Below, one piece after another: positions 55,675 to 64,000 of a stretch of DNA of 64,000 bases. A model generated the notes under the pieces. That model was given only the letters and a program-made list of their open reading frames with translations. It had not been told where the DNA came from and did not search any database. Every line of letters begins with the position of its first letter. Positions within the stretch are counted from its first letter, which is position 1. The translations under genes were made by a program, and so were the position numbers. The DNA is taken from positions 1 to 64,000 of the forward strand of contig NZ_FPBO01000020.1 in NCBI RefSeq assembly GCF_900116645.1. Reading direction: 5' to 3'. Source of the DNA: Pseudoduganella namucuonensis. GTDB taxonomy: Bacteria; Pseudomonadota; Gammaproteobacteria; Burkholderiales; Burkholderiaceae_D.

Positions 55675-55750
55675 GGGTCGTTAGCTCAGCTGGTAGAGCA
55701 GCGGACTTTTAATCCGTTGGTCGCAGGTTCGAATCCCGCACGGCCTACCA
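55675..55750 (+). tRNA. tRNA-Lys (anticodon TTT), copy 1
   Basis: A 76-base cloverleaf: D arm GCTCAGCTGGTAGAGC, anticodon arm CGGACTTTTAATCCG with TTT, T arm CAGGTTCGAATCCCG (T stem closing approximately), and encoded CCA. The acceptor stem starts with a G-U pair. Confidence 0.95.
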
Positions 55751-55778: not shown

Positions 55779-55854
55779 GGGTCGTTAGCTCAGCTGGTAG
55801 AGCAGCGGACTTTTAATCCGTTGGTCGCAGGTTCGAATCCCGCACGGCCTACCA
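55779..55854 (+). tRNA. tRNA-Lys (anticodon TTT), copy 2; island attachment site
   Basis: Identical in sequence to copy 1, 28 bases downstream. Its 3' half and the terminator beyond it are repeated in diverged form at 63861-63979, which marks it as the integration site of the following island. Confidence 0.95.
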
Positions 55855-55920
55855 AGAATTGTCAAGGAAGCCCACGAATTTCGGTTCGTGGGCTTTTTTG
55901 TTTCTGGTCCATTTCTGGTC
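55806..55920. other. Probable attL: direct repeat of tRNA-Lys 3' half plus terminator
   Basis: From the anticodon stem of tRNA-Lys copy 2 to the doubled TTTCTGGTCC motif (55910-55930 region), this stretch matches 63862-63979 with roughly nine of ten bases identical. Such repeats arise when an island integrates in a tRNA gene. Confidence 0.75.
55869..55899 (+). terminator. Terminator of the tRNA-Lys genes
   Basis: AGCCCACGAA pairs with TTCGTGGGCT over TTTCGG and leads into six T. Confidence 0.9.
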
Positions 55921-56420
55921 CTTGCCTCGCCGCCCCTCTCCTTGGGACCGGTGCACATTGTTCTCCGGTGGATAAAGGGAGGGAAATTGAAACCACAAAG
56001 CGAGGGGGCAAAGCGACAGTTGTATGCCCGTCTGGGCGATATTGGTTGCCACTCATCCTGCGGAGGGCTCTAAATAGGACATTGTGGCGAGGCTGGCTAG
56101 CACAGGCACCAACGCGTACCACTTGGTGGCAGCGTCCCCCATCAAAAGCCAGAGCGACGGACAACGCGTCAGTAGCAATTCAGTGCATGAAACTCAGTCT
56201 GCCCAACGGATGACGTGTCTATAAGGGGCACTGACCTGACCAGCTTCAAGGGAAAAGCGTTCAACTATAATTTGACCATTGTCCGACGCATGAATTTTTG
56301 ATTCTTCTTTACCACAGGTGCAAATTTATTTGATCAAAGTGACAATTGGTTAGAAATTCAGAGCTGCCCCTATCGCACAATCTGCTTAAGTAAACATTGA
56401 TTTTGCGCAAGGAGTTGCTC
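55900..56420. other. Island left non-coding region
   Basis: About 520 bases without a supported gene. It contains two direct copies of TTTCTGGTCC one base apart (possible recombinase arm sites), a 44-base segment repeated at 60429-60472, and an AT-rich stretch before the protease gene that should hold its promoter. Confidence 0.5.
55951..55994. repeat. 44-bp imperfect repeat, copy 1
   Basis: From GTGCACATTGTTCTC to ATTGAAACC. About 34 of 44 bases match copy 2 at 60429-60472 without gaps. Both copies lie upstream of an island gene module. Confidence 0.7.
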
Positions 56421-57806
56421 ATGCACAAGCCTTCAAAGAAGAGTTTTTGCCTCAGCGCCCTATTCAGCACCTGCGCCAGCGCAGGCGCTGAACCGATGAG
56501 TTTTACAGTTGAAGTGGAACCATCGACCAGCGCCTATCTGTCAAAGAGCGATGGTAAGTTCCTTCAAGCTCTCGGCAAGCTATCTCTAAAGCACACATTT
56601 ACGCACACACCATCCGCCCCATCAGCCTTTGCTGAAATCATCCCGGGACTCAGTTCCGAGACCGAAAAACGACTGAAATTATCGGCGATCGCAAAAATGG
56701 GGGGCGGCGCGAATGGATGTTTGGCGGCAGGCACGAAAGCCGTAGCAGCTACCGCGACATCAAAATTCCTCATTAAATTCGGCGCAGACACCTTGCCGGG
56801 AAAGTACCGCGTCGCCATCAACTCTAAACTGGCTGGCGATGGGGCTGCCGACATGATTTTTCTGCGCGACTCAGAAAACCGCACTGTCGTCCCGGACGAA
56901 AACGGTGTAATCGAGTTCGAAGCAAAACGGAACAGCGCTGCAACGGTTACCGCAGATGTGCGCACAACAGCGGGGCTTAGCGATAACGGGTGTGTCAACC
57001 AAAGCAAGGGCGCACTGGACATAACGCTATCAGTTACTCGTGCCCCTATGATGGGTGGGGCAGTCGTTCCCTTCATGCTTCATAGCCCAATCACACAAGA
57101 TTTCGGCGCTGTAGGCGTTATTGCAAAGAAAAATGCGGAAAATAAATACGAGACTCATTGCACCGGCACGTTGATTGCCAGCAAATCAGTCCTCACTGCA
57201 GCACACTGCGTTGCTGGAGACTACGAAAACGAATTTAACGCAGGAAGATACTACTTCGTGCTCGGCTACGATACCGTCGCCGCCATCTCTCCAATACCGA
57301 TCAGCGGAGTTACCTATCCAACAGGAGAGGCCCCCTGGAAATTTACATACGCCAAGACATCCATCGACGGGAATGACACTACCAAAAACGATGTCGCGCT
57401 CATCTACCTTAAGACTGCGCAAACCGAACGCCCCCTATCCTTGTATGAAGGCGACCCATCCTTAAAGAATATTTACAACACCAAAGAAGAATTGCTTTTT
57501 GTGGGATTCGGGTACAACAACATCGATAGCAATGGCAAGCCCAATTACAAAGAGACAGACAAAAAGCGCAGTGCAAAATTGCCCATCAGCTCCATGGATG
57601 ATTTTATCTTCAGCTATCAAGCAAATGCCAAAGGCCAACTAACTTGCCGCTATGACTCAGGCGGTCCCGCCATGCGGCTGACACCGACAAAGGGATGGCA
57701 AATTATTGGCGTCACCGCCTTCGGTTCAAAGTTTTGCGACGTGAGCGGAAGCAGTATGCGGGTCGATACCTATGCCGGATGGATACGAAGCAAAATCAAA
57801 AACTAG
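56421..57806 (+). CDS. Secreted trypsin-like (S1) serine protease
   Basis: Start ATG at 56421 follows AAGGAG. The 461-residue protein has a signal peptide (~1-24), about 200 residues of unrecognised N-terminal region containing VTADVRTTAGLSD, and an S1 peptidase domain from ~235. The triad is visible: His262 in LTAAHCVAG, Asp324 in TKNDVALIYL, Ser413 in CRYDSGGPAM (Tyr where GDSGGP normally has Gly). Codon use is AT-richer than the host genes. It is followed by two more exported proteins, suggesting a secreted attack or processing cassette. Confidence 0.85.
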   Translation: MHKPSKKSFCLSALFSTCASAGAEPMSFTVEVEPSTSAYLSKSDGKFLQALGKLSLKHTFTHTPSAPSAFAEIIPGLSSETEKRLKLSAIAKMGGGANGCLAAGTKAVAATATSKFLIKFGADTLPGKYRVAINSKLAGDGAADMIFLRDSENRTVVPDENGVIEFEAKRNSAATVTADVRTTAGLSDNGCVNQSKGALDITLSVTRAPMMGGAVVPFMLHSPITQDFGAVGVIAKKNAENKYETHCTGTLIASKSVLTAAHCVAGDYENEFNAGRYYFVLGYDTVAAISPIPISGVTYPTGEAPWKFTYAKTSIDGNDTTKNDVALIYLKTAQTERPLSLYEGDPSLKNIYNTKEELLFVGFGYNNIDSNGKPNYKETDKKRSAKLPISSMDDFIFSYQANAKGQLTCRYDSGGPAMRLTPTKGWQIIGVTAFGSKFCDVSGSSMRVDTYAGWIRSKIKN

Positions 57807-57869
57807 CGCTTCAGGATTCAGTAGTCTTTTCCAATGTAGCATTCAACAGCAACTCAAAAAAGGGCTCTC

Positions 57870-59156
57870 ATGGACTACTATCGTTTTCTGCCAATAACCA
57901 CTCTCAGTCTTGCGCTGCTGGCCCCGACATGTGCCGATGCCGCCAACAAGAGCAACAGTGATATAGCTAAATTAGCCAAGGCAGCCGAGGATGCGGCGCA
58001 AGCTGCCGCAGCAGCAGCCAAGGCAGCGGCCGTCGCAGCGGAGGCTGCCAACAAGGCCGTTACAGCTCTTCAGGCAGCCTCCGCTCCAAAAAAAGAAGAG
58101 TCTAAGCCTTTGACTCCCGAACAACTCAAAGAAAAGGCGAAGGCTGAAACAATTGCGGAAAATCAAGGCAAGAATTTTTTCACACCATCAGCGCAAGACT
58201 CTCCTGAGAAAAACCCTTCCGCCAGTTGGATATATATATCCTCACTGCCATTGGACCCTGACCACAGTAAATTTATGCAAGACCCGCCTCTCCGCTTTTA
58301 TCACAGGGATCAATTCACGCCGATCCCAGCATTTGAAAAGCCCACCTTTAAAAATCAATCTATCGGGTTCACAAAGTCTGGTCGCCCTCCCGAAATGAAA
58401 TTGTTCGAACCAGGGAGGGAGATATGGGAAAAAGGGCATGAGATAAGAATCGGCTACATTGTACCAGGCGATTGCAAGGACATTCCTGAGTTTGTGGCGT
58501 TCAACGAAGAACAACGGTCGACGCTGCTTCAGAATCAGGCCAAACAGTTGGCAAGCTCACTTATCAAGGCAGATAAGTCAACAACCAATACGGACGAGGA
58601 CCGGTACTGCATATACGGCGACGGTTACACGCTGCAGGAAAAGCGCGCCAATTTGAAGCTCGATGTGAAGGGTACCGGCGCTGATGAACGCAAAACCAAA
58701 TCTGCGACCATAATCACCGGACCGGAAGAACACTGGTACCTGTCCACCGAAGCCCGCCTCAATTCGCTGAAAGAACTGACTTACGACAAGGCCACAAAGA
58801 GCATCACGGAAAAGAAGAAATCGGGAAATATGTACCTGGGGCTGAATTATATGGTCGGCGATATTCTGACCGATCACGGCCTAACTTCCCTGAAAAATTT
58901 CGGGGTGAAGCTCATGGTCAATGCACATGACAAGCCACTCGACTCCATCGGCCTAGGCGTGTCCTATCAACTCAAGTCCAATGTATTGGGCACCAACCTG
59001 CCGGTCTCCTATGCGGTTTTTGGCGGCTACTTCCGCCAAAAGGGCCAGAACGGTGCGGCCAGCAGCGGCGCGTGGGCGTGGGGTCTCAGCTACAACTTCG
59101 TCAGCGGGGAAAACCCCAAGGAAACGGAAGCCAAAGACTCTGCGGCAAAAAAATAA
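57870..59156 (+). CDS. Exported protein with Ala-rich coiled coil and beta-rich C-terminus
   Basis: A 428-residue protein with signal peptide (1-24, ending ADA-A), then an Ala/Lys coiled coil (~30-75), a central domain, and a C-terminal stretch with alternating polar/apolar beta strands (GLGVSYQLKS, PVSYAVFGGYF, AWGLSYNFVSG) resembling an outer-membrane barrel. I do not recognise the family. It is 63 bases after the protease gene and 20 before the phospholipase gene. Confidence 0.75.
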   Translation: MDYYRFLPITTLSLALLAPTCADAANKSNSDIAKLAKAAEDAAQAAAAAAKAAAVAAEAANKAVTALQAASAPKKEESKPLTPEQLKEKAKAETIAENQGKNFFTPSAQDSPEKNPSASWIYISSLPLDPDHSKFMQDPPLRFYHRDQFTPIPAFEKPTFKNQSIGFTKSGRPPEMKLFEPGREIWEKGHEIRIGYIVPGDCKDIPEFVAFNEEQRSTLLQNQAKQLASSLIKADKSTTNTDEDRYCIYGDGYTLQEKRANLKLDVKGTGADERKTKSATIITGPEEHWYLSTEARLNSLKELTYDKATKSITEKKKSGNMYLGLNYMVGDILTDHGLTSLKNFGVKLMVNAHDKPLDSIGLGVSYQLKSNVLGTNLPVSYAVFGGYFRQKGQNGAASSGAWAWGLSYNFVSGENPKETEAKDSAAKK

Positions 59157-59176
59157 ACAAAAGAGGGAAGTCTTTT

Positions 59177-60151
59177 ATGATGCATGTTCACAGACACATG
59201 ACGACCTTGGCCTGGGCAGCGTCGCTGGCACTTTCTCCTGCAGTGTTTGCCCAAGAGTTGGCCAATGGTGGGGATAGCCGCTATTTGTCTCGCCTTGTGC
59301 CTTTCGAATCAAGCCATGCGATTGTTCAGCGCGCCCAAAATGACGAGACTGCGCTGAACGCCCGCTACTCGTTCCGCTATAGCATCATCTCGGATGAATC
59401 TCATCACATGCCCTGCCGGGCTGCTACGCCGGACGCAACTGATGAGAGAGATTGCAGCGAATGGTTTCTTGCCTATAACGGAGAGTTTGATTTCTATGCA
59501 GGGACCCGCCCGTCTGGGCCGGTGATTAACCGAACCAGCAATCCCTCTGGACATTTTCGTTGGCGCGACAAAGAGGGATCCTACGTAGATGTCGGCATCC
59601 AGCATCGCTCGAACGGTCAAGTCCAGGACCCCAGCGATCCGCTGGTTCAGGAACGGGCCGCGCATGCCTATGCCATTGGCGATCATGCTTACTTTGACGG
59701 CATGAGCCGTAGCTCAAACTACGTGTCGCTGGAGGGTGGCAAAAGGTGGCGTGAGAACTATCAACTCACGGCCAGCGGCAAGCTTTATTTTGCTCAGGAT
59801 GGCGACGTCAGCTGGGGACCGCTGGCCAACTCCCGGTCCAAACTCTCCGACTATGACCGCCTGCAATTCCGGGCGCGCGCCAAGTTCTGGCGTGCGGATG
59901 CCGGAATCGAATGGACTGTCGGCGACAAAGGTTTGCATACCGACTCCTGGAATGCAGACATATCCATTGTCTATGGCGGCCTCCCCTTTTACCTTCGCTA
60001 CCATCACGGTCCCATGCGTACCTTGTCCAACTACACCGTGCCGCAGAGCACAATTGGATTTGGCCTGATATTCCTGCCCGACCCCTGGGCGCGTGCAAAC
60101 AGGGATACCGATACCAAAGCCCGCAAACAGGACAGCAAGAATGTCCAATGA
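59177..60151 (+). CDS. Outer-membrane phospholipase A-like protein (OMPLA/PldA family)
   Basis: A 324-residue exported protein; the ATGATG start follows GAGGGAAG and a signal peptide ends FA-Q near residue 25. The OMPLA active-site motif HxSNG appears as QHRSNGQ with His143 and Ser145, very close to the positions in E. coli PldA; later beta strands and DRLQFRARAKFW fit the barrel. Such enzymes hydrolyse phospholipids in the outer membrane when activated. Its place in a mobile island beside a secreted protease is unusual. Confidence 0.85.
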   Translation: MMHVHRHMTTLAWAASLALSPAVFAQELANGGDSRYLSRLVPFESSHAIVQRAQNDETALNARYSFRYSIISDESHHMPCRAATPDATDERDCSEWFLAYNGEFDFYAGTRPSGPVINRTSNPSGHFRWRDKEGSYVDVGIQHRSNGQVQDPSDPLVQERAAHAYAIGDHAYFDGMSRSSNYVSLEGGKRWRENYQLTASGKLYFAQDGDVSWGPLANSRSKLSDYDRLQFRARAKFWRADAGIEWTVGDKGLHTDSWNADISIVYGGLPFYLRYHHGPMRTLSNYTVPQSTIGFGLIFLPDPWARANRDTDTKARKQDSKNVQ

Positions 60152-60236
60152 GCCAACAAGCTCCCCCAAAGCCGCCCACGGCGGCTAAGGCATAGCTACC
60201 ACGCAAATGCGCGTGCCAGATGCGCTGCATGCAATG

Positions 60237-60440
60237 CTCTTACTTGACAGGCTTTTTCTTAGCACCATGGGCGGCTTCGTAAATAGTCTTGACGTCCTTG
60301 TGCGTCTGGTCGATAGTTGTCCTCGTGCTTGACGAAGAACGCCTTGTCTTACGCACCGACCACCGGCTTGACGGCGGTGGCTTCGGCCATGCCGTATTTT
60401 TCGAAGATCAGTTTACTTGCCTGGGTCGGTGTACATCGTT
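60237..60440 (-). pseudogene. Possible remnant of a coding gene, frame-broken
   Basis: On the minus strand two frames give natural-looking protein pieces with GC-rich codons (ending ...KKKPVK and stop; and ...YGMAEATAVKPVVGA and stop). They cannot be joined without frameshifts. The original product is not recognised. Confidence 0.3.
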
Positions 60441-60472
60441 CTCTGGGGGATATAAGGGGCGGAGTTGAAACC
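60429..60472. repeat. 44-bp imperfect repeat, copy 2
   Basis: From GTGTACATCGTTCTC to GTTGAAACC; counterpart of 55951-55994. It precedes the NACHT-protein module. Confidence 0.7.
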
Positions 60473-60660
60473 AACTGCCCTCCGCCCTCGACTCCGCTCG
60501 CTATGGCACCGTCTAGGCCGATGCAGCTTGAACCGCATGCTGAGGTGAATCGCCAGCGACACTTGAAGAAGATTGACTGTTTAGTACCCGAAGACATAGA
60601 CTGCGCTAGTATCGCGACGACTGTAGTCGCTCAGTGAACGCAGCCAAACTAGGGAGCTTC

Positions 60661-63627
60661 ATGCAAGGTAATCTGTTAGACCTCATTCGCGGCTATTCAA
60701 TGCCGTACGTTAAACGCCTCACAGGCTCGCCATCAGATGCTCGCGAATATGCGGCACTCGTAGATTTTCAGATAAAAGTTGCCCTTACTCTGCTTGCAGC
60801 TTATAGCGGTCGGACAGCCGCCCCAATTAAGCTCGGTGACACGCCGGGAGTTGGGCAAATGCTAAGCGGAATTAAACTTGCCAAGAAATGGACCGCTAGC
60901 CTAGACCCTGTTATCGTTGGGTGGCGCGAGTTCGCAGAGAGACTTCTTAATGAATTTTCCAGGAACATCCATGATGGCAAAGGCTTTAAGGCCATCCGCG
61001 ATGAACTTTCGCATGGCACGCCAATTCCCGTCGAAGATGCTTCTGCCGCCGCTATCTGCACAGCCTTGCGCGAATTTTCTGAGATAGTCGGTCAACACAT
61101 TGAAACTCAGGTCAGCAAATTCTGCTATGCGGCGACCCCTACGTCGATTCGGCTCTCATGTGGAGCGGACAATCAAGAAGTTGCCCCGTTGTGGGACTTC
61201 AACGCAGCGCAAGGTGTAATTGGGATCTACTCAACCTTTGACACCGATGGCGTGTATTACCTATGCCCGTCCATTGGCGCCTATCGCAATCAGAGACCTG
61301 AGAATACGGCAGCGTTTCGTACGACATTTCTTAGCAAAGATCCCACAGAAAAGCATTTCGGCCAGTTCGTATTTGAAATTACACGAGATATTGCGGGTTT
61401 CTGTGAAGATCATTCTCCGCCGCCTTATGACTTCGGTGAAGGCGAGCACGCTGGTGTTATTTTTGTAACTTGGACCCAGGCGAGCAGCCAGGGCAATACT
61501 CACAGGACGGATATGTTCCGTCGCGGGCAAGATAATCGATACGAATGGTTTGACGTCAGCGCTAACACTTGGATTGGATTTTCCAGTTTCCTCCGAAAAA
61601 TTGCGAATTGGACTCTACTGGCGCGACGCGTCCGCATAGAGCTTGACGAACAAGAGCGGCGCAAACAAGTGGCTGAGATGGGAACATCACAGCCGACAGG
61701 CGGCATGAAAATCACGGCGGTGCTAGTCGAAGAGGCCGAGACTCCTGATGATTCGTCGCCTGTTCAGGTGACTCCAATTAACCTTCAAGCGCGCGCCGAC
61801 AATTCTTGCCAGCCCTCAAAGAATTTCACAACCGTATATTTTGTTGTCGGCGACGCAGGCATGGGTAAGACTGATTATCTACTGACGCTCGCCCGTGCTC
61901 GTGCCCATGCAGTCGAAACAAATCCGACAGTCGAATCACCGCTCTATTTGTTCGTTAGCTCTACAGGACGCGCTCTTTCCAACCTAGACGATGCGATTAA
62001 CACTTCACTCAGCATTACACACATACTAAACAACCATAGCGCGAAGGTCCTATGCCGAAACGGTTTGCTTGTGCTTATCGTCGATGGTTTCGATGAACTT
62101 CTGGGCAGCAGTGGCTATGATAATCCGCTCGGCTCTCTAGAAGGATGGTTCAAGGATTTGCGCGGCCGAGGAGTTATGATCGCCTCTGCCCGCTCTTCTT
62201 ACTATATGACCCGGTATCGTCGCTCTCTTAGCGAGACAACGGACCTGAATGTGGAACATACGGTTGCGGATATTCAGCCATGGACACCAGAAGATACAAC
62301 AGCATTCCTGCATAGCTATGGCGTTCCTGCAACGGCCCTGACCGACCTCAGTGCACGTGACTGGCGGTTGCTGACTATCCCCTTCTTTGCCAAAGCATTT
62401 GCGACCTGGTCTACGACGTCTCGATCCAATGGTGAGGAACCGACTGGAGTCTTCCAGATCGTTGTTGAACAATACCTCTCGCGTGAATCAACGAAAATTG
62501 CGGACCAAAATAACGCGCCTATTCTCTCTAAGTTAGAGCTTCAAACTCTGTTCAGTGAGTTCGCTGAGATGATGCACATTGAAGGCAAGAGAGAGCTTGA
62601 GCAATCAGATCTGGAACTTTGTGCTAGTGCGGCGCTAGGGTTCAATGACATCGATAAAGAAAGACCCGGATTGCGACGTCGTCTAACCTCGCTGTGCGGC
62701 CTATCAGTCGGAGAAATGGTTGCTGGGGACAGCAAATTTGGATTCTCTCACGAAGTAATCTTCGATTGTTTTCTGTCTCTAAGCTTGCAACGGCGTTGTG
62801 CGGCAGGAGTCGAAATGACTTACGTCAACAACGTTTTCAGCAAGGCGGCGATTAATACAGCTGTCATTGAGTGGTTTGTCGCAGCCAACGTAAACGTGGC
62901 GCAAAGCGTCCTGGACATCCTCCGTCCCGCTGGCGGCACGTCTTCGATCTGGAAGAAAAACGTTGGAGCTCTCTGGACCGCGCTTCTAAATCACAGCGGG
63001 GGCATGCCCCCCACTCTGGCAGCGTCAGAGCTTGAATTCCAAACCGTTGAATTGAGTATGGGCCGAGGGAAGCAACTCACAATGCGCGGTGCCAAAATCG
63101 ATCAACTTAAAATCTCGCGGGATGCCCCCATCATTGATATCAAAGAAACATCCATCAAATACCTAACTGTGGATGAAGCCTCAACGCTTAGCCTGCTTCG
63201 TGGTGTCGCGCCTGAAATGATCCAAAAAATGCAAGCTCCGGGGAGTTATTGTGACACGACCGCGAGCGTCCGCACCGTCTTGGAAGAGGCTGGAGTTATT
63301 GCAAAACAAGCATCTGCTGCGACCCTGGAATGGCTAGATACGGCTAACTACTTTATTGAATCGCTGGTAAGCCGCCCGGATGCACCCATAGTAGTAATGC
63401 ATGACAACCTAGAACCGGACTCGGAACGGTTAGGCTGGGCAACGAGGCTCGGATTGGCGAAATGGACACAATTTCTTAATCGACTCACCCAATGCAAACT
63501 GGCATCGTGGGAACCACTTGTTGCCAAAAAGCAACCAAAGAAGCGACTGGTATTCCATGTGTCTCCTGCTGAAATTTCGCGGCGAAATAGCAGCATTCCT
63601 GGGATAGCCGATTTTTGGAACTCCTAA
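60661..63627 (+). CDS. HEPN-like/NACHT (STAND) NTPase, candidate anti-phage defence protein
   Basis: A 988-residue cytoplasmic protein; ATG at 60661 is chosen for GGGAG just before it (an in-frame GTG at 60634 is an alternative). The N-terminal ~130 residues are helical and contain Arg113-X4-His118 in IRDELSHGTP, the HEPN ribonuclease pattern. The NTPase core has Walker A GDAGMGKT at 397-404 and Walker B LIVDGFDEL at 472-480, the NACHT form with DGFDE. Helical arrays follow, and the C-terminal ~250 residues are unrecognised and may sense the trigger. NACHT proteins in bacteria are known to abort phage infection; this role here is inferred from architecture and island location. Confidence 0.75.
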   Translation: MQGNLLDLIRGYSMPYVKRLTGSPSDAREYAALVDFQIKVALTLLAAYSGRTAAPIKLGDTPGVGQMLSGIKLAKKWTASLDPVIVGWREFAERLLNEFSRNIHDGKGFKAIRDELSHGTPIPVEDASAAAICTALREFSEIVGQHIETQVSKFCYAATPTSIRLSCGADNQEVAPLWDFNAAQGVIGIYSTFDTDGVYYLCPSIGAYRNQRPENTAAFRTTFLSKDPTEKHFGQFVFEITRDIAGFCEDHSPPPYDFGEGEHAGVIFVTWTQASSQGNTHRTDMFRRGQDNRYEWFDVSANTWIGFSSFLRKIANWTLLARRVRIELDEQERRKQVAEMGTSQPTGGMKITAVLVEEAETPDDSSPVQVTPINLQARADNSCQPSKNFTTVYFVVGDAGMGKTDYLLTLARARAHAVETNPTVESPLYLFVSSTGRALSNLDDAINTSLSITHILNNHSAKVLCRNGLLVLIVDGFDELLGSSGYDNPLGSLEGWFKDLRGRGVMIASARSSYYMTRYRRSLSETTDLNVEHTVADIQPWTPEDTTAFLHSYGVPATALTDLSARDWRLLTIPFFAKAFATWSTTSRSNGEEPTGVFQIVVEQYLSRESTKIADQNNAPILSKLELQTLFSEFAEMMHIEGKRELEQSDLELCASAALGFNDIDKERPGLRRRLTSLCGLSVGEMVAGDSKFGFSHEVIFDCFLSLSLQRRCAAGVEMTYVNNVFSKAAINTAVIEWFVAANVNVAQSVLDILRPAGGTSSIWKKNVGALWTALLNHSGGMPPTLAASELEFQTVELSMGRGKQLTMRGAKIDQLKISRDAPIIDIKETSIKYLTVDEASTLSLLRGVAPEMIQKMQAPGSYCDTTASVRTVLEEAGVIAKQASAATLEWLDTANYFIESLVSRPDAPIVVMHDNLEPDSERLGWATRLGLAKWTQFLNRLTQCKLASWEPLVAKKQPKKRLVFHVSPAEISRRNSSIPGIADFWNS

Positions 63628-63860
63628 CTTGCTGGGGATATCAATCATTAGCTGCAGCCAACAGCTCTTAGCGTGCTGAAGCAAGGAGTCTACGCTCTGC
63701 TGACCAGTCAAGAATCCGGTCAATGTACGGTTCTACGGCCCGCTCTGGTCCTGTTCTGGTCCTCGCAAGGAGCCAATTGACTCGGCGCGCTATTAGCTAT
63801 GTTTGCAGGTGGATGGGCGTTTATACATGCTGAGCGTCAAAGGTAACTACTGCGCCCCAC
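63628..63860. other. Right non-coding end of the island
   Basis: About 230 bases without an intact gene. It contains a doubled TTCTGGTCC motif (63744-63762 region) like that beside the left boundary and, on the minus strand, a short reading frame resembling a piece of a tyrosine integrase. Confidence 0.45.
63672..63802 (-). pseudogene. Possible integrase fragment
   Basis: The minus-strand frame reads RAVEPYIDRILDWSAERRLL and then stops. The ILDW..ERR pattern recalls the start of the catalytic domain of P4-type tyrosine recombinases, which is what one expects beside an attachment site. The fragment is too short for certainty. Confidence 0.3.
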
Positions 63861-63979
63861 CGGACTTTTAATCCGTTGGTCGCAGATTCGAATCCCGCAC
63901 GGCCCGCCACGAATTGTCGAGGAAGTCCACGAATTTCGGCTCGTGGGCTTTTTTGTTTCTGGCCCATTTCCGGCCCGTC
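63861..63979. other. Probable attR: diverged tRNA-Lys 3' half plus terminator
   Basis: Starts in the anticodon stem (CGGACTTTTAATCCG) and runs through the T arm, CCA-like end, the terminator hairpin CCCACGAA/TTCGTGGG-type and the doubled TTTCTGGCCC motif. It lacks the 5' half of a tRNA and carries changes in the T arm and acceptor stem (GATTCGAA, GGCCCGCCA), so it is not a working tRNA gene. Confidence 0.75.
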
Positions 63980-64000
63980 CCTCCATCCCCACCGTTGTTA

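What the first reader, a model, noticed from the sequence alone, without database searches (positions are those of the whole stretch)
56421..60151. Secreted protease, exported barrel-like protein and OMPLA phospholipase as one mobile cassette
Three consecutive genes (gaps of 63 and 20 bases) all have signal peptides. Two are hydrolases acting on protein and on membrane lipid. OMPLA genes are normally chromosomal and solitary. Travelling together on an island suggests a joint function such as envelope lysis, release of cargo, predation or killing of competitors, or envelope-level phage defence working with the NACHT protein.
Basis: partly seen in the sequence, partly recalled or inferred. Interest (0 to 1): 0.6.

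Follow-up and report, generated by a model that had tools for sequence, protein, structure and literature searches.

The report
Exported protease–phospholipase cassette in defence hotspot
A bacterium carries, in a tRNA-gene slot where several of its relatives keep anti-virus systems, a rare set of three neighbouring genes for proteins sent to the cell envelope (a protease, an unknown protein and a probable membrane-lipid-cutting enzyme), which may be an untested envelope-level defence but was not seen as a set in any other genome searched.

Summary
At 56421-60151 three same-strand genes (gaps 63 and 20 bp) encode an exported trypsin-fold protease with an intact triad, an exported protein of unknown family, and a remote OMPLA relative keeping the His-Ser-Asn pattern. 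They lie in an 8-kb low-GC element bounded by a 126-nt repeat of the tRNA-Lys 3' end; no integrase was recognised in it. The genome has an ordinary OMPLA elsewhere. What I add: copies of this tRNA-Lys repeat, or of the 47-nt sequence beside it, border islets in other genomes of the genus, and 9 of 13 examined carry known or candidate anti-phage genes (type I RM, Kiwa, two retrons, Shedu, PD-Lambda-1, NACHT, GmrSD/SEFIR, ATPase/HEPN). The sample was not random. So the cassette sits in a defence hotspot. My best reading is a wholly exported, envelope-acting accessory system, most likely anti-phage, in which envelope damage and proteolysis unleash an outer-membrane phospholipase in the producing cell. 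Anatomy is solid; function is inference (0.4). Rivals: a degradative cassette, or chance neighbours.

The parts
55675..55750 (+). tRNA-Lys (TTT), first copy
   Evidence: ARAGORN
55779..55854 (+). tRNA-Lys (TTT), second copy; its 3' part is in the island's left repeat
   Evidence: ARAGORN; repeat D2
55803..55928 (+). left 126-nt att-like direct repeat (tRNA 3' part plus terminator-like stem)
   Evidence: stem 55863-55900
55949..55995 (+). 47-nt repeat next to att; similar sequence follows att copies in G583 (L094) and G562 (L095)
56421..57806 (+). P1: exported trypsin-fold (S1) protease, H262/D324/S413, about 240-aa N-terminal region of no family
57870..59156 (+). P2: exported protein of unknown family; Ala/Lys-rich segment after the signal peptide, C-terminal region shared with a G132 protein (31% over residues 243-369)
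59177..60151 (+). P3: exported OMPLA-like protein, H143/S145/N181, twelve longer strands in a low-confidence model
60317..60377 (.). 61-nt stretch 74-79% identical to sequence near or downstream of the tRNA-Lys site in five other fetched loci; opposite orientation here
60427..60473 (+). second copy (79%) of the 47-nt repeat; likely left edge of a separate NACHT islet; a match also in G579 near Shedu
60634..63627 (+). NACHT-domain gene, 997 aa; probably not part of the cassette
   Evidence: PF05729 E 2.3e-7
63858..63983 (+). right 126-nt att-like repeat (90%), lacking the tRNA 5' part
   Evidence: tRNA 3' part 95.7% over 47 nt

Best explanation
The three genes are one accessory operon delivered by site-specific integration at tRNA-Lys into a slot that this genus often uses for defence genes. 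I think it most likely works as an envelope-level anti-phage system acting in the producing cell. P1 would be an exported serine protease restrained by its N-terminal region or by P2; P2 an exported scaffold or sensor; P3 a dormant outer-membrane phospholipase. Envelope damage during phage attack or lysis would release the protease and activate the phospholipase, which breaches the outer membrane and stops the infection by killing the cell or spoiling phage release. Shown: genes, active-site residues, att-bounded element, hotspot context. Inferred: co-transcription, export, enzyme activities, trigger, anti-phage function.
For: Contiguous same-strand genes with no terminator-like site in the gaps. 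Protease triad intact. OMPLA-type His-Ser-Asn pattern kept. Element bounded by 126-nt repeats. Known or candidate defence genes in 9 of 13 genomes examined that have an att or 47-nt copy; as a per-ORF yardstick, 1 of 31 window core ORFs matches PADLOC at E 1e-10, some of those ORFs probably not real genes. The host has an ordinary OMPLA as well, so P3 is an added function. Two P1 relatives (G138 at 30%; G547, weak, protease domain) are preceded on the same strand by another gene with a lipoprotein-like N-terminus by eye, which fits protease-plus-partner modules. Published: OMPLA activity is generally induced only by envelope perturbation (PMC5043575, start of abstract in a listing); trypsin-like proteases activate partner nucleases in several defence systems (PMC12799240, abstract and passages).
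Against: No second genome with the trio or with two of the three. The protease-activated defence pairs of PMC12799240 are not described there as exported: its main text has no occurrence of 'signal peptide', 'periplasm' or 'membrane'. P1, P2 and P3 match no defence model strongly (best LmuA E 2e-4 and Avs1b E 6e-4, over the trypsin region only). P3 differs slightly in GC from P1 and P2 (0.56 against 0.51), and a promoter-like match overlaps its start. P2- and P1-like genes in G132 and G138 lie beside a GMC oxidoreductase/hydrolase/PhoD giant protein, which suggests lipid or nutrient chemistry instead. The hotspot sample was chosen by att copies in a truncated list, not at random, and 4 of 13 showed no identified defence gene.
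Confidence: 0.4

Rival explanations
1. A secreted degradative cassette: an exported protease plus a surface phospholipase used for scavenging, predation or attack on other cells, which happened to land in a tRNA island.
For: The closest P2 relative found (G132) and the closest P1 relative found (G138) each lie beside a rare giant protein with GMC oxidoreductase, alpha/beta hydrolase and PhoD-like domains (domains scanned for the G132 protein) plus a response regulator and hybrid kinase. Two further loci near this site carry hydrolase-like genes with lipoprotein-like N-termini by eye (L096 DUF900 hydrolase; L103, no Pfam match, GHSLGAQ motif by eye).
Against: No immunity gene or dedicated secretion gene recognised among the ORFs of the cassette. 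P3, if a barrel, sits in the producer's own outer membrane. 9 of 13 islets examined at the repeat carry defence genes. The giant-protein link is post hoc and holds in 2 of the 6 genomes where I found a hybrid of at least 1100 aa.
Confidence: 0.25
2. Three unrelated exported genes that accreted next to each other on a mobile element, with no joint function.
For: P3's relatives are solitary: in G067 it lies beside a chemotaxis-receptor-like gene (by eye), and G574 has a fragment only. No trio or pair elsewhere. P3 GC3 0.63 against 0.56 and 0.58. A promoter-like match overlaps the P3 start.
Against: Short gaps, same strand, all with signal-like N-termini; 5 of 30 core ORFs passed the crude signal test, so three in a row is not expected, though P1 itself just failed that test.
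Confidence: 0.25
3. The three genes and NACHT form one system: NACHT senses infection in the cytoplasm and the exported proteins execute it.
For: All four genes lie inside the same outer att repeats; STAND NTPases and trypsin-like proteases do co-occur in known or proposed systems (PMC10907252 and PMC12799240, passages).
Against: 482-bp gap holding a second 47-nt repeat and a remnant of sequence that lies near the site elsewhere; compartments differ; in G544 a NACHT gene is the only ORF of 100 aa or more in the same slot (L088).
Confidence: 0.1

Closest known systems
Outer membrane phospholipase A (OMPLA/PldA, PF02253)
   Same: His-Ser-Asn pattern in HxSNG...SRSxN; remote profile similarity; twelve longer strands in the low-confidence model; OMPLA chains recur among Foldseek hits
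   Different: below the Pfam cut-off, longer segment between Ser and Asn, encoded beside an exported protease on an att-bounded element; the host keeps an ordinary OMPLA
Trypsin-fold S1 serine proteases (PF00089)
   Same: clear domain match and catalytic triad
   Different: about 240-aa N-terminal region with no family; only 2 of 141 family genomes, this one included, match the whole protein
Nuclease-protease pairs of Hachiman, AVAST, Lamassu and DRT (PMC12799240)
   Same: a trypsin-like protease with an adjacent enzyme, on a defence-type island
   Different: P1 is predicted exported and not fused to a defence enzyme; the neighbour is an outer-membrane-type phospholipase, not an MBL nuclease; 'signal peptide' does not occur in that paper's main text
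tRNA defence hotspots of E. coli mobile elements (PMC10121019)
   Same: small islands with defence cargo at a tRNA gene
   Different: [quoted passage not shown] the window has no ORF similar to the integrases found in G559

Membership tests
OMPLA / PF02253 | Pfam gathering score | tested here: not met
   P3 13.3 bits against 27; G067 relative 23 bits
OMPLA / PF02253 | catalytic His, Ser and Asn in the HxSNG...SRSxN context (roles recalled) | tested here: met
   H143, S145, N181 aligned with two ordinary OMPLAs; in G067 the His, Ser and later Asn are kept, HRSDG replacing HRSNG
OMPLA / PF02253 | 12-stranded outer-membrane barrel | tested here: inconclusive
   twelve strands of five or more residues but pLDDT 47; Foldseek OMPLA hits at ranks 3, 5, 9-11, 20, 26, 34 with E from 0.018 and TM 0.24-0.35; ranks 1 and 2 are other barrels (SAM complex, EspP) and no hit reached E 0.001
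OMPLA / PF02253 | calcium-dependent phospholipase activity, activation by dimerisation (recalled) | not testable with these tools
   needs purified protein
S1 trypsin | domain match above cut-off with intact His-Asp-Ser | tested here: met
   55.7 bits against 20.6; motifs
AVAST type 1 / nuclease-protease pairs | trypsin-like domain fused to a defence enzyme, MBL nuclease upstream | tested here: not met
   no MBL match among the island proteins scanned; P1 ends with the protease domain; only weak Avs1b/LmuA hits over that domain
Site-specific tRNA genomic islet | tRNA-derived direct repeats at both ends, low GC | tested here: met
   126-nt repeat, 90%; GC 0.52
Site-specific tRNA genomic islet | own integrase | tested here: not met
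   no window ORF of 80 aa or more similar to the G559 integrase at E 1e-3 (other recombinase families not sought there); no integrase match for the four island proteins
Known anti-phage defence system | match to a curated defence model | tested here: not met
   P1, P2, P3 against PADLOC: best E 2e-4, P1 only

The most novel reading that the evidence does not exclude
A wholly exported, three-protein immune system: phage damage to the envelope releases a periplasmic protease that, through P2, unleashes an outer-membrane phospholipase acquired apart from the housekeeping one, so the infected cell is opened from outside before phage can be assembled.
Probability: 0.2. Interest if true: 0.8.

Novelty: new variant of a known kind. 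Interest (0 to 1): 0.48.

Why it matters
If the cassette is defensive, every one of its parts works outside the cytoplasm and its executioner attacks the outer membrane; I saw no such system in my paper searches (listings and some passages only). Independently, the tRNA-Lys slot is a compact defence hotspot in this genus, and its unknown cargo (this cassette, the L096 and L103 hydrolase-like genes, the L113 ATPase) is a short list of candidates to test.

Tried and rejected
P2 as a phage, plasmid or viral protein: no match in plasmids or phages, none in viral contigs or genome contigs. P3: none in plasmids, phages or viral contigs. P1: four Rhizobium-group plasmid trypsins at 25-26% over the protease domain, no phage or viral match. 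NACHT: no plasmid or phage match. Solved structures: P3 nothing (by profile one irrelevant chain at E 0.54), P2 nothing convincing. AF2 of P2 failed (pLDDT 32), so no fold search was made with it. The phrog_2636 tail-fibre match of P2 (E 0.009, residues 20-82) was set aside as Ala-rich sequence. Order-level P1 hits (15 of 300 genomes including this one) covered mainly the protease domain with E above 4e-6; in 13 of their loci that I listed I saw no P2- or P3-like neighbour by eye, but the flanks are short. A P2 hit in G531 (E 7.5e-4, one stop inside) was treated as noise. The giant GMC/PhoD protein: 14 stretches fetched, no further P1-P3 relative by phmmer at E 1e-3.

Hotspot count, rows and drops. 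One search lists nine genomes besides this one with an att copy lacking the tRNA 5' half (G583, G559, G538, G572, G591, G536, G544, G594, G543); its list was truncated. I added G562, G570 and G560 (weaker copies, 76-90% over 70-98 nt) and G579 (47-nt copy only). No identified defence gene: G583, G536, G560, and G543 (an SMC-like ATPase, Pfam only). G544 counts by its Pfam NACHT match (1.8e-7); its best PADLOC match is only E 1e-5. Six more genomes fetched (G584, G593, G588, G565, G547, G548) showed only complete tRNA copies or weaker fragments (G593 46 nt, G588 37 nt) and were not counted; with G593 and G588 it would be 9 of 15. For G572, G591, G536 and G543 the orphan copies lie on contigs other than the one with the best tRNA hit, so their place at this site is not proven. 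Proteins scanned singly against PADLOC were hand-picked: 13 of 20 matched at E 1e-10; a batch scan of 39 gave a tally only.
Full report
What is there. The window is positions 1-64000 of a 147,307-bp contig in an 8.49-Mb draft genome whose genus-mate G067 is, by equal contig length and position, Pseudoduganella violaceinigra DSM 15887. After tolB, pal, a cpoB/ybgF-like gene and two tRNA-Lys genes (the tolB and pal names are by eye), GC falls from 0.61-0.66 to 0.49-0.56 and the three genes follow: P1 56421-57806, P2 57870-59156, P3 59177-60151, gaps 63 and 20 bp. A NACHT gene follows at 60634-63627.

The proteins. P1 is a trypsin-fold protease (E 8e-15) with H262, D324 and S413. P2 has no convincing family match. 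P3 is a remote OMPLA relative: below the Pfam cut-off, but with the His-Ser-Asn pattern in register with two ordinary OMPLAs, a relative at 45% identity in G067 with PF02253 E 6.8e-5, and a profile match to six OMPLAs at probability 79.6. Results against it: a first profile comparison with two OMPLAs gave 1.7%, an OMPLA HMM put P3 alone at E 6.7, and the model is poor (pLDDT 47; OMPLA chains at eight of the first 34 Foldseek ranks but only from E 0.018, behind two other barrels). The genome has a standard OMPLA on another contig (E 1.7e-91); 13 of 21 genomes, this one included, have such a match.

The element. A 126-nt direct repeat, 90% identical, containing the 3' part of tRNA-Lys, lies at 55803-55928 and 63858-63983. 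A 47-nt sequence 20 nt after the left repeat recurs at 60427 (79%); similar copies follow att copies in G583 and G562, and one lies near the Shedu gene of G579. Just before the second copy, 60317-60377 resembles sequence near or downstream of this site in five other fetched loci, in the other orientation. I read this as two islets side by side, the trio and NACHT. No ORF similar to the integrase of G559 is in the window or in the other hotspot loci compared; other recombinase families were not sought there.

The hotspot. All 74 genus genomes match the tRNA-Lys query. Of 13 genomes examined with an att or 47-nt copy, 9 have a known or candidate defence gene: type I RM (G572), KwaA and KwaB (G591), retron II-A RT with its deoxyribosyltransferase (G594), retron IV RT (G570), PD-Lambda-1 (G562), Shedu (G579), NACHT (G544), GmrSD plus SEFIR plus ATPase (G538), and a PDC-S06-type ATPase with HEPN, RT and integrase (G559). 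Yardstick, per ORF and not per genome: 1 of 31 window core ORFs matched PADLOC at E 1e-10; these ORFs were picked by length and some are probably not real genes. The sample was not random and the scanned proteins were hand-picked; dropped rows are in Tried and rejected.

Co-occurrence. Matches at E 1e-3, counting this genome: P1 2 of 141 family, 15 of 300 order, mostly protease domain only, 2 of 74 genus. P2 2 of 145 family, 1 of 399 order, 2 of 74 genus. P3 2 of 141 family, 3 of 392 family. The samples overlap. No other genome appears in the tables of two of the three proteins. Two leads remain. First, the P1 relatives in G138 and G547 are each preceded on the same strand by a gene with a lipoprotein-like N-terminus (319 and 563 aa, by eye); the G547 match is weak (E 9.4e-4), its gene pair has GC 0.51-0.52 and lies upstream of a tolB-like gene (by eye). 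Second, the P2 relative of G132 and the P1 relative of G138 both lie by a giant GMC/hydrolase/PhoD protein with a response regulator and hybrid kinase.

Mechanism. OMPLA is generally activated only when the envelope is perturbed (PMC5043575, start of abstract in a listing), and trypsin-like proteases activate partner nucleases in several defence systems (PMC12799240, abstract and passages). Joining these with the hotspot context gives the envelope-defence reading at 0.4. Export, co-transcription, activity and phage protection are all untested. A barrel in the producer's own membrane argues for action in the producing cell (inference).

Novelty. In the papers searched (listings, plus passages of three papers and of PMC7383365) I saw no protease-OMPLA defence cassette and no report of this tRNA-Lys hotspot; most subscription-journal papers and all preprints are outside that library. 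Hotspots of defence cargo at tRNA genes are known in E. coli (PMC10121019, passages).

Noticed in passing
window 55803-63983 and L088, L090-L093, L095, L096, L098, L100: The tRNA-Lys site is a defence hotspot in the genus, with islets bordered by partial tRNA copies; of those compared only G559 (L093) showed ORFs similar to its integrase.
   Followed up: partly
L011 6233-9094 (G138): A TP_methylase gene (PF00590) followed by a repetitive WSG(I/Y)YGT protein: resembles a borosin RiPP cluster (recalled), close to the P1-like protease.
   Followed up: no
L005 2974-8619, L012 6797-12490, L025 3580-9363: A giant protein of about 1,900 residues joining GMC oxidoreductase, alpha/beta hydrolase and PhoD-like domains (scanned for L005), beside a response regulator and hybrid kinase in L005 and L025.
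   Followed up: partly
L116 4924-7925 (G547): Low-GC overlapping gene pair: a 563-aa protein with a lipoprotein-like N-terminus and an exported trypsin-like protease (PF00089 E 2.4e-12), upstream of a tolB-like gene (by eye).
   Followed up: partly
L096 911-2149 and L103 722-2092: Hydrolase-like genes with lipoprotein-like N-termini near the same tRNA-Lys site (DUF900 in the same gene run as Shedu; an unclassified GHSLGAQ protein).
   Followed up: partly
L113 10354-12522 (G543): GC 0.38 SMC-like ATPase gene next to an orphan att copy near a contig end; not scanned against PADLOC.
   Followed up: no
L109 / L112 (G574): 71-residue open fragment matching the C-terminal part of the P3 family: probable remnant.
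   Followed up: partly
window 60634-63627: NACHT protein whose first 389 residues match no Pfam family and which has no plasmid or phage match.
   Followed up: partly
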